Below, piece by piece: positions 721 to 33,077 of a stretch of 33,077 bases of DNA (positions are counted from its first letter, which is position 1; each line of letters starts with the position of its first letter). The position numbers and the translations under genes were made by a program. The notes beneath the pieces are model-generated. The model saw nothing but the letters and a program-made list of their open reading frames with translations. It had not been told where the DNA came from and made no database searches. The DNA lies in the NCBI GenBank assembly GCA_004292595.1, contig RDXM01000127.1, forward strand, positions 1 to 33,077, in the 5' to 3' direction. The DNA comes from Candidatus Kapaibacterium sp. (GTDB lineage: Bacteria > Bacteroidota > Ignavibacteria > Kapaibacteriales > UBA4661).

Positions 721-1137
721 TTAATTCAGCCAAAACATCGCATCAACGCTTACGCCGTCGGTCATCCAGCAATCACGGTAGCGAGCTTCGCGCTGCAAGG
801 AGAGAGTGAAGGTGTAGATAACGGTTTGGCTTTCTTCGCCAATAACCATAACGCGCTGCTGCGCAATCGTACCAGCAAGTATCACGGGTTCATACAATGC
901 GCTTTTGTGGTTCAGCATCACACCATAGATGGGGTTTCGCACGATTTGCTTAAAACGCGACAGAGGACCAGTATAAACTTTATTTCCAGGGGATGCAAAG
1001 TTAAAGGCAGTGGCGATACCTTCATCATTGGAGGTGTTGTTATGGCGCAAAGCATCAAGTTGGATGCGAATAACTTCATCGGGAGCTAATTCAGGACGAG
1101 GCTGTGGAAGGGTATTGTGTTCTTGATGAGAGTGCAT
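721..1137 (-). CDS. DUF4864 domain protein
   Basis: The gene encodes a 138-residue protein with no signal peptide or membrane segment. The sequence holds the run GIATAFNFASPGNK, then GPLSRFKQIVRNPIYGVML, and ends near CWMTDGVSVD. I recognise this as the DUF4864 family, small soluble proteins of cyanobacteria, plants and assorted bacteria whose function is not established. The length fits a single complete domain. The opposite-strand frame over the same bases (700-1089) has no recognisable motif. The start at 1137 has no clear Shine-Dalgarno, which is common in Bacteroidota-like genomes. The gene stands alone between the helicase remnant and the kinase gene. Confidence 0.72.
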   Translation of the reverse strand: MHSHQEHNTLPQPRPELAPDEVIRIQLDALRHNNTSNDEGIATAFNFASPGNKVYTGPLSRFKQIVRNPIYGVMLNHKSALYEPVILAGTIAQQRVMVIGEESQTVIYTFTLSLQREARYRDCWMTDGVSVDAMFWLN

Positions 1138-1342
1138 AAAAGTACGATAAATGCTGAGATTGGAAGGAAATTGAACGAAAGGAATGTAGTTTTCAGTGAT
1201 AGCATGAACGCGAGAGGTATCTGTTTGCGAGTCTCAAGGTCTTTTGCACAACAATTTTTTACGAAAACAGATTACAAACTTAGGGAAAATTTTTGAAATA
1301 GAAAACAATAGGTACGGTTATTATAAAAAATTACTGTACTGC

Positions 1343-8855: not shown

Positions 8856-8937
8856 CGGAAGGTGAGGGACTCGAACTCTCATGGGATCACTCCCGGCGGT
8901 TTTCAAGACCGCTGCAATACCATTATGCGAACCTTCC
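8856..8937 (-). tRNA. tRNA-Ser (anticodon UGA)
   Basis: Read on the minus strand, the gene starts GGAAGGT and ends ACCTTCC plus a G discriminator, giving a perfect 7-bp acceptor stem. The anticodon stem-loop is GCGGT-CTTGAAA-ACCGC with anticodon TGA, which reads UCA serine codons. A type II variable arm (GGGA-GTGA-TCCC) is present, as required for tRNA-Ser, and the T arm contains TTCGAGT. The discriminator G fits serine identity. CCA is not encoded. Confidence 0.93.
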
Positions 8938-31406: not shown

Positions 31407-31472
31407 ACGACGCGCTGACCACTGCTTGCTGGCGATTGCTTGACACTTTGCCATTCACCTTTCTCTATCTTC

Positions 31473-32909
31473 ATGCACCACACCACGACACTCAAACCCC
31501 GCTTTATTACAATGCTTGCCGACACATTCACGCCGGTCAGTATTTATTTGCAAGTCCGCGACGTATTTCCGAATAGCGTTTTGCTGGAAAGCTCGGATTA
31601 TCATGGGAACGAAAACTCCTGTTCGTACATTTGCTGTAAGCCAATTGCGGGATTTGTTGTGGAGCAACACGGCACGAAAAACACGATTTCATGCCGCTTG
31701 CCAGACAATTCCCACGAAACTTGCGCCGATGTGCCAGCAAACGAGATACTGCCTGCCTTGCGGCAATTTATCGCGGGTTTTCATACCGAACGCTTGGATA
31801 TTCCCTATCTACACGACGGAATTTTTGGCTACATCACCTACGATGCCGTGCAGTATTGCGAAGATATTACGCTTGCGCAAACAACAGAAGAAAGCCGCGT
31901 CATTCCTTGCTTGCAGTATCATTTGTACCAATACATCATTATTCTGAATCACTTCACCAATGAAGTTTTTTTGGTCGAACACGTGCCAGAAGATGTGCCA
32001 GCACAGAACAATGATGATTCTTTACAAGCACTCGCACAGCTGATTAGCAAAAAAACCTTCGCAAGCTACCATTTTACGCCGTCGGAAGAGGAGCAATCGA
32101 ATTTTACCGATGAAGAATTTCTCGCAACGCTGGAGCAAATAAAGCCGCATATTTATCGTGGCGATGTGTTCCAAATTGTGCCGTCGCGCCGCTTCCAACG
32201 GAGCTTCAAGGGGGATGATTTCAACGTGTATCGGTCGCTTCGCAGCGTGAATCCTTCGCCGTATTTATTTTATTTTGATTATGGCTCGTTTCGTCTTATG
32301 GGGTCGTCGCCAGAGGCGCAAATTATTATCCACAACGGCAAAGCAGAAATTCACCCGATTGCAGGCACGTTTCGGCGCACCGGCAACGACGCAACCGATG
32401 CCGAACACGCAGCCGCATTGCAAAAAGACCCGAAAGAAAATGCTGAACACGTGATGCTTGTTGATTTAGCGCGAAACGACCTCAGCCGCCACTGCAAGAA
32501 CGTGCAGGTAGAAGTCTATAAGGAAGTGCAGTATTACTCGCACGTCATTCACTTAGTCTCGAAAGTAACGGGACAGCTTACTACCAGCAATGACGCGCTC
32601 TCTGTGCTTGCCGATACCTTCCCAGCTGGTACGCTCTCTGGCGCACCAAAATACATGGCAATGACGCTCATTGACCGCTACGAGCGCGGCGCACGTGGCT
32701 TCTACGGTGGGGGAATTGGCTTTATTGATTTTCGAGGAAATGTCAATCACGCCATTATGATTCGCTCGCTTATGAGCAAAAATAATACGCTGACATACCA
32801 AGCAGGAATGGGCTACGTGGCAGATTCTCAGCCTGAAAGCGAGCTTCAAGAGGTGAAGAACAAACTGGGGGCATTACGCAAAGCGATTGCGCTGGCGGCG
32901 AAGTTGTAA
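31473..32909 (+). CDS. trpE: Anthranilate synthase component I
   Basis: From ATG 31473 the product is 478 residues, aligning with Bacteroidetes-type TrpE at LLADT-like MLADTFTPVSIYLQVRD; the frame upstream to 31440 is an unneeded extension. It makes anthranilate from chorismate, using ammonia or glutamine through TrpG. NSVLLESSDYHG carries the usual tryptophan feedback element (LLESS). The catalytic chorismate-binding domain shows DVFQIVPSRRF, HPIAGTFRRTG, AEHVMLVDLARNDL, VIHLVSKVTG, TFPAGTLSGAPK and GFYGGGIGFIDFRGN. All look intact. No trpG follows in the 168 bp left in the window; a HEARO-like RNA sits there instead. Confidence 0.95.
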   Translation: MHHTTTLKPRFITMLADTFTPVSIYLQVRDVFPNSVLLESSDYHGNENSCSYICCKPIAGFVVEQHGTKNTISCRLPDNSHETCADVPANEILPALRQFIAGFHTERLDIPYLHDGIFGYITYDAVQYCEDITLAQTTEESRVIPCLQYHLYQYIIILNHFTNEVFLVEHVPEDVPAQNNDDSLQALAQLISKKTFASYHFTPSEEEQSNFTDEEFLATLEQIKPHIYRGDVFQIVPSRRFQRSFKGDDFNVYRSLRSVNPSPYLFYFDYGSFRLMGSSPEAQIIIHNGKAEIHPIAGTFRRTGNDATDAEHAAALQKDPKENAEHVMLVDLARNDLSRHCKNVQVEVYKEVQYYSHVIHLVSKVTGQLTTSNDALSVLADTFPAGTLSGAPKYMAMTLIDRYERGARGFYGGGIGFIDFRGNVNHAIMIRSLMSKNNTLTYQAGMGYVADSQPESELQEVKNKLGALRKAIALAAKL

Positions 32910-32977
32910 AAAAGGCTGGAAAACGTGATGCAAGGAGGTTTTGTTTACTTCCATGTCTATTTCCATTTTTATCAGAT

Positions 32978-33077
32978 ATGCCGTAAAACCCCTAGCTTTA
33001 GCTATGGGGATATAAGGCATTGTGCTTCAGCCAGGAAGTAGTGTCGGTTTGACCCGTCTTCGGGGCAAGGCGACGCT
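32978..33077 (+). ncRNA. HEARO / omega-RNA-like structured RNA, cut by the window edge
   Basis: From 32978 the sequence folds into nested stems: ATGCC (32978-32982) with GGCAT (33016-33020); CCCCTAGC-TTTA-GCTATGGGG (32989-33009), an 8-bp stem with a single unpaired T, the type of hairpin recognised by IS200/IS605 TnpA; AGTGTCG (33040-33046) with CGACGCT (33071-33077); and CCCG/CGGG inside it. The run GTGCTTCAGCCAGG, followed after about 10 nt by GTCGGTTTGACCCG, resembles the HEARO RNA family (HNH Endonuclease-Associated RNA and ORF), now known as the guide-bearing omega RNA of IscB/IsrB nucleases. In that system the guide lies at the 5' end, here near 32958-32977, and the nuclease ORF follows downstream, outside this window. 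The family call is from memory of the consensus. Confidence 0.65.
32989..33009 (+). mobile_element. IS200/IS605-type hairpin with bulged T
   Basis: CCCCTAGC and GCTATGGGG pair around TTTA, leaving one T unpaired at 33005. Single-strand transposases of the IS200/IS605 group bind imperfect hairpins of this shape near element ends. Cleavage sites (TTAC-like at 32945-32948, 40 nt upstream) are uncertain. The rest of the element is beyond the window. Confidence 0.55.

What the first reader, a model, noticed from the sequence alone, without database searches (positions are those of the whole stretch)
32958..33077. Window ends inside a HEARO/omega RNA, so an IscB- or IsrB-type RNA-guided nuclease probably lies just beyond the right edge
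Three interlocking stems, a TnpA-type hairpin with a bulged T, and a sequence pattern matching my memory of the HEARO family all fall in the last 100 bases. In known loci this RNA carries a transposon-derived guide at its 5' end and is followed by the iscB or isrB gene. The 20 bases before the first stem (32958-32977) would be the guide, read from DNA flanking the insertion, here the trpE 3' flank. Such systems are compact ancestors of Cas9 and few have been studied in this phylum.
Basis: partly seen in the sequence, partly recalled or inferred. Interest (0 to 1): 0.82.

Follow-up and report, generated by a model that had tools for sequence, protein, structure and literature searches.

The report
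Left end of a tnpB insertion sequence
The last 109 bases of the window are the left edge of a common jumping gene that carries the RNA-guided nuclease TnpB, not the guide RNA of an IscB nuclease; the only unusual part is a long, evolutionarily maintained hairpin just inside that edge.

Summary
The stretch is the left end of a multicopy IS200/IS605-type element. The genome has at least 11 copies, nearly all at contig ends, because the repeat breaks the assembly; the window's contig stops there too. Copies that read further lead into tnpB, and two complete ~1.4-kb copies in a sister species encode TnpB. The right half of this insertion was probably found: contig C155 begins with the tnpB 3' end and right end, then an LRR gene that follows trpE, without insertion, in one sister species (TTAT|TTCC junction). 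The nuclease is therefore TnpB, and its guide should come from the right flank, not from 32958-32977. A genuine HEARO-IscB pair exists elsewhere in this genome (contig C70). Just inside the end, a ~70-nt hairpin shows strong covariation and is shared by tnpB-only, tnpA+tnpB and gene-less copies; no Rfam family matches it and its role is unknown. A new member of a known kind.

The parts
31440..32909 (+). trpE (anthranilate synthase component I), the gene left of the insertion
   Evidence: Pfam PF04715 and PF00425; 84% DNA identity with the sister-species locus G005:C21
32969..32972 (+). TTAT target tetranucleotide at the insertion point; predicted TnpB TAM
   Evidence: TTAT precedes every complete left end of this subfamily in the own genome and G002; the empty site in G005 reads TTAT|TTCCATG and contig C155 continues TTCCACG directly after the right end. 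Calling it a TAM is inference from ISDra2 (PMC8612924)
32973..33077 (+). Left end of an IS200/IS605-type tnpB element, cut off by the end of the contig
   Evidence: At least 11 copies in the own genome; complete copies with tnpB in G002; a 54-bp match to annotated tnpB elements in Alicyclobacillus and Bifidobacterium plasmids, and a 42-bp match to a tnpA-tnpB element in Campylobacter
32978..33020 (+). Terminal stem-loop: outer stem ATGCC/GGCAT (32978-32982 with 33016-33020) around the TnpA-type hairpin
   Evidence: Fold; outer-stem pairs invariant in 14 copies, inner hairpin pairs with compensatory changes
32989..33009 (+). TnpA-type imperfect hairpin CCCCTAGC-TTTA-GCTA-T-GGGG with bulged T at 33005
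   Evidence: Fold; also in the Alicyclobacillus tnpB element
33023..33077 (+). First 55 of 70 positions of the conserved subterminal hairpin; its 3' part lies beyond the contig end
   Evidence: Model R1 59.9 bits, E 2.8e-14, cut off at 3'; covariation in 10 of 27 pairs

Best explanation
32973-33077 is the left end of an IS200/IS605-type element of about 1.4 kb that carries tnpB and no tnpA of its own. It sits behind TTAT between trpE and a convergent LRR gene. Shown: the left end, the tnpB gene in sister copies, a contig with the matching right end, and the empty site in one relative. Inferred: a Y1 transposase (TnpA) supplied in trans recognises the terminal hairpins and excises and inserts the element as single-stranded DNA next to TTAT. 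TnpB binds an RNA made from the 3' end of tnpB plus the right end; its guide is the right flank (about TTCCACGTAATAATGG). It cuts the rejoined TTAT+flank site after excision, so that repair restores the element. The ~70-nt subterminal hairpin lies before the tnpB start and a Bacteroidota-like promoter motif. It most likely acts in cis, either as part of the end structure or as a barrier to transcription from outside (inferred, low confidence).
For: At least 11 copies in the own genome, nearly all at contig ends. The C109 copy runs on into MLRAFKYRLYPT..., the start of TnpB: the homologous frame in G002 matches PF12323, PF01385 and PF07282 and is 95% identical to it over 87 aa. Two complete copies of 1390 and 1406 bp in G002. 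C155 begins with the tnpB 3' end and right end, followed by the LRR gene; in G005 the same LRR gene follows trpE without an insertion. No HEARO. tnpB annotated behind the same left end on plasmids and tnpA-tnpB in Campylobacter. TAM and guide logic from ISDra2 TnpB (PMC8612924).
Against: The inside of this very copy is not assembled, so its tnpB could be damaged or missing, as in the 417-bp C93 copy. The pairing of C106 with C155 rests on synteny in one relative, and the left flank is too diverged to align base by base. Several tnpB-like frames in the genome carry stops or are partial. No intact tnpA was found in the own genome: one Y1 match has two stops and lies at a contig end, the other is weak. 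No expression data.
Confidence: 0.95

Rival explanations
1. HEARO/omega RNA of an IscB or IsrB locus: the guide lies at 32958-32977 and the nuclease gene with RuvC (and HNH) follows.
For: IscB elements share the IS200/IS605-type ends, a structured RNA lies at their 5' end, and the genome does contain one HEARO-IscB pair.
Against: No HEARO match in the window, in longer copies or in a complete copy (up to E 5). The C70 HEARO sequence shows no visible resemblance. The gene behind this end is tnpB in all readable copies.
Confidence: 0.02
2. A gene-less (MITE-like) derivative: the left and right ends are present but the interior is deleted, and it is moved in trans.
For: Such a copy exists on contig C93 (417 bp between ends, no tnpB match in the own-genome tnpB search).
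Against: C155 begins with tnpB 3' coding sequence in front of the right end, so at least that part of the gene is kept if C155 is the right partner.
Confidence: 0.04
3. The subterminal hairpin is itself a small regulatory RNA or an attenuator in the tnpB 5' leader, like the structured 5' end of the IS200 tnpA transcript in Salmonella.
For: Strong covariation; a 5'-derived structured sRNA is known from IS200 tnpA (PMC12594629).
Against: The promoter-like motif TACTTTTG lies downstream of the hairpin and next to the ATG, so a transcript from it would not contain the hairpin. The hairpin is kept in a gene-less copy.
Confidence: 0.3

Closest known systems
IS200/IS605 family elements that carry tnpB (ISDra2 and relatives; tnpB-only, IS1341-like types)
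   Same: Left end with imperfect bulged hairpin, tnpB with OrfB_IS605 and zinc-ribbon domains, right-end hairpin directly behind tnpB, TTAT-type target with no target duplication, helper tnpA on related copies
   Different: A ~70-nt conserved subterminal hairpin between the left-end hairpin and the gene, absent from the Alicyclobacillus relative, which has a shorter left end and no match to the model
HEARO / IscB / IsrB OMEGA systems
   Same: Transposon-borne, RNA-guided RuvC nuclease next to a structured 5' segment
   Different: No HEARO model match; nuclease is TnpB, without HNH or RRXRR; guide expected from the right flank
IS200 structured 5' leader of tnpA (5'tnpA sRNA, art200)
   Same: Strong stem-loops at the left end, upstream of the reading frame
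   Different: Different sequence and length; here shared by tnpB-only and gene-less copies; no expression evidence

Membership tests
HEARO RNA (RF02033) | Covariance-model match above 83 bits | tested here: not met
   None in the window; none in C109, C75 or C118 copies; none up to E 5 in the complete G002 C220 copy. The same model finds the C70 locus at 145 bits
IscB/IsrB locus | RuvC(-HNH) or RRXRR gene directly downstream | tested here: not met
   Downstream gene in all readable copies is tnpB, or tnpA then tnpB. Not testable on this very copy because the contig ends
IS200/IS605-type tnpB element | Left-end hairpin with bulge next to a short fixed target sequence | tested here: met
   TTAT then hairpin in all aligned copies of the subfamily
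IS200/IS605-type tnpB element | tnpB gene with HTH_OrfB, OrfB_IS605 and zinc-ribbon domains | tested here: met
   Complete sister copies and the C71 copy in the own genome; in this copy only the 3' end is seen, on C155
IS200/IS605-type tnpB element | Right-end hairpin directly after tnpB, and insertion without target duplication | tested here: met
   C155 right end GCCCCCGCC-TTTA-GGCG-T-GGGG then TTCAC; flank continues as in the empty site of G005, one relative only
IS200/IS605-type tnpB element | Mobilisation by a Y1 (HUH) TnpA | tested here: inconclusive
   tnpA with the same left end in the sister genome G004:C46 (PF01797); only one broken and one weak Y1 match in the own genome
TnpB RNA-guided endonuclease | reRNA from the right end guides cleavage at a TAM | not testable with these tools
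   Needs RNA-seq and cleavage assay; known for ISDra2 (PMC8612924)

The most novel reading that the evidence does not exclude
The subterminal hairpin is a previously undescribed cis-acting element of a genus-restricted IS200/IS605 group, kept by selection on its structure across tnpB-only, tnpA+tnpB and gene-less copies, which controls either transposition or expression of the nuclease.
Probability: 0.3. Interest if true: 0.35.

Novelty: new member of a known kind. Interest (0 to 1): 0.17.

Why it matters
It corrects an attractive but wrong filing: a left end with strong hairpins can look like an omega RNA when the contig stops inside it. The general lesson is that a contig end inside a repeated IS should prompt a check of the other copies before an IscB locus is claimed. 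The covarying subterminal hairpin is the one part that could interest specialists in IS200/IS605 regulation.

Tried and rejected
HEARO model at gathering and at E<=10 on the window: nothing. Rfam on the element copies: no family at gathering score except the separate HEARO on C70, so neither the leader hairpin nor the right-end RNA matches a curated family. The automatic consensus fold of A1 chose the truncation-type stem for the leader with almost no covariation support (-0.22 kcal/mol); the long hairpin was tested instead on the complete copies, with the caveat that it was derived from those sequences. The trpE search in named genomes only placed the organism in Bacteroidota, with the nearest fragment (67% identity) from a Candidatus Kapaibacterium MAG; it gave no close named relative. 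The trpE-LRR neighbourhood was found only in G005, not in the G006, G002, G007 or G009 stretches examined.

Full report
What is there. The window is one whole contig (G000:C106, 33077 bases), so the finding lies at a contig end, not at an arbitrary cut. Bases 32969-33077 are strongly structured (RNA z -4.1, DNA z -5.1, no shuffle as good). The hairpin CCCCTAGC-TTTA-GCTA-T-GGGG with its bulged T is real (32989-33009) and sits inside a second stem (32978-32982 with 33016-33020). The folds are hairpins in a row rather than interlocking stems.

It is not HEARO. Rfam finds no HEARO in the window at the gathering threshold or up to E=10 on the last 378 bases. Truncation is not the reason: copies that read further and a complete copy give none either. 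The same model finds one HEARO in this genome, on contig C70 (145 bits), in front of a gene with RRXRR and HNH domains, i.e. iscB. So the genome does have an IscB locus, but elsewhere.

It is the left end of a repeated element. The own genome holds at least 11 copies of this end, nearly all at contig ends, which explains why the contig stops here. Alignment shows that similarity begins sharply at TTATC, with unrelated DNA before it. The C109 copy runs on for 283 bases into a frame starting MLRAFKYRLYPTAPQQ, the start of TnpB. Contigs C20 and C71 carry the rest of a related tnpB and the right end. Two complete copies in the sister genome G002 measure 1390 and 1406 bp and encode TnpB with PF12323, PF01385 and PF07282. 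On public plasmids the first 54 bases match the left ends of annotated tnpB elements of Alicyclobacillus and Bifidobacterium, and 42 bases match a tnpA-tnpB element of Campylobacter.

The other half of this insertion. In the sister genome G005, trpE is followed by a convergent LRR gene without insertion. In the window's genome the matching LRR gene (83% identity) lies on C155, 99 bases from the contig start, and those 99 bases are the tnpB 3' end plus right end. The empty site in G005 reads ...TTAT|TTCCATGTGATAATGG; C155 reads ...GGGGTGATTCAC|TTCCACGTAATAATGG; the window reads ...TTTTTAT|CAGATATG. The insertion point is thus TTAT, without target duplication, at the very end of the LRR gene, whose frame now runs on into the element (423 instead of 398 codons). 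This pairing rests on one relative; four other stretches examined did not show the same neighbourhood.

How it probably works. By established knowledge of the family, Y1 TnpA recognises the end hairpins and moves the element as single strands. No intact tnpA was found in the own genome, but a sister genome has a copy with the same left end followed by tnpA and tnpB, so the tnpB-only copies are probably moved in trans. ISDra2 TnpB binds an RNA from the tnpB 3' end and right end whose last ~16 nt come from the right flank, and needs a TAM equal to the left target sequence (PMC8612924). By analogy the guide here would be TTCCACGTAATAATGG... on C155 and the TAM TTAT.

The subterminal hairpin. Between the terminal hairpin and tnpB, complete copies carry a ~70-nt imperfect hairpin (TGCTTC...GAAGCA). 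On ten distinct copies 95.5% of cells pair, 10 of 27 pairs show changes on both sides and the covariation score is 0.305 against 0.132 in shuffles and at most 0.079 in slid versions. The structure was derived from these sequences, which favours it on cells paired, but the double changes (e.g. TGCTTC/GAAGCA against CGTCGC/GCGACG) are plain in the letters. A model of it matches 29 places in four of eight genomes of the genus searched and none of the 33 other genomes (strict filters), and the window as a match cut off at its 3' end (E 2.8e-14). It is found with tnpB, with tnpA+tnpB, and in a gene-less copy. A Bacteroidota-like promoter motif (TACTTTTG) follows it just before the ATG, which argues that it is not part of the normal tnpB leader. 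Its function is open; a cis role in transposition or as a transcription barrier is the preferred guess.

Verdict. The observation of structure is right, the family name is wrong, and the biology is an ordinary tnpB-bearing insertion sequence with one mildly interesting conserved hairpin.

Noticed in passing
   Followed up: partly
G000:C93 about 839-1260 (-), L167: A gene-less, MITE-like copy (417 bp between ends) with terminal hairpins and the subterminal hairpin, with compensatory changes relative to the main group.
   Followed up: partly
G004:C46, L165 603-1792: A relative with the same left end and leader hairpin that carries tnpA (PF01797) followed by a tnpB only 38% identical to the main group: a possible helper element.
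   Followed up: partly
G000:C155 1-1289, L208: The insertion removes the stop codon of an LRR gene, whose frame continues into the right end (423 codons against 398 in G005).
   Followed up: partly
window 8856-8937 (-): A tRNA gene (51.9 bits), the only Rfam match in the window.
   Followed up: no
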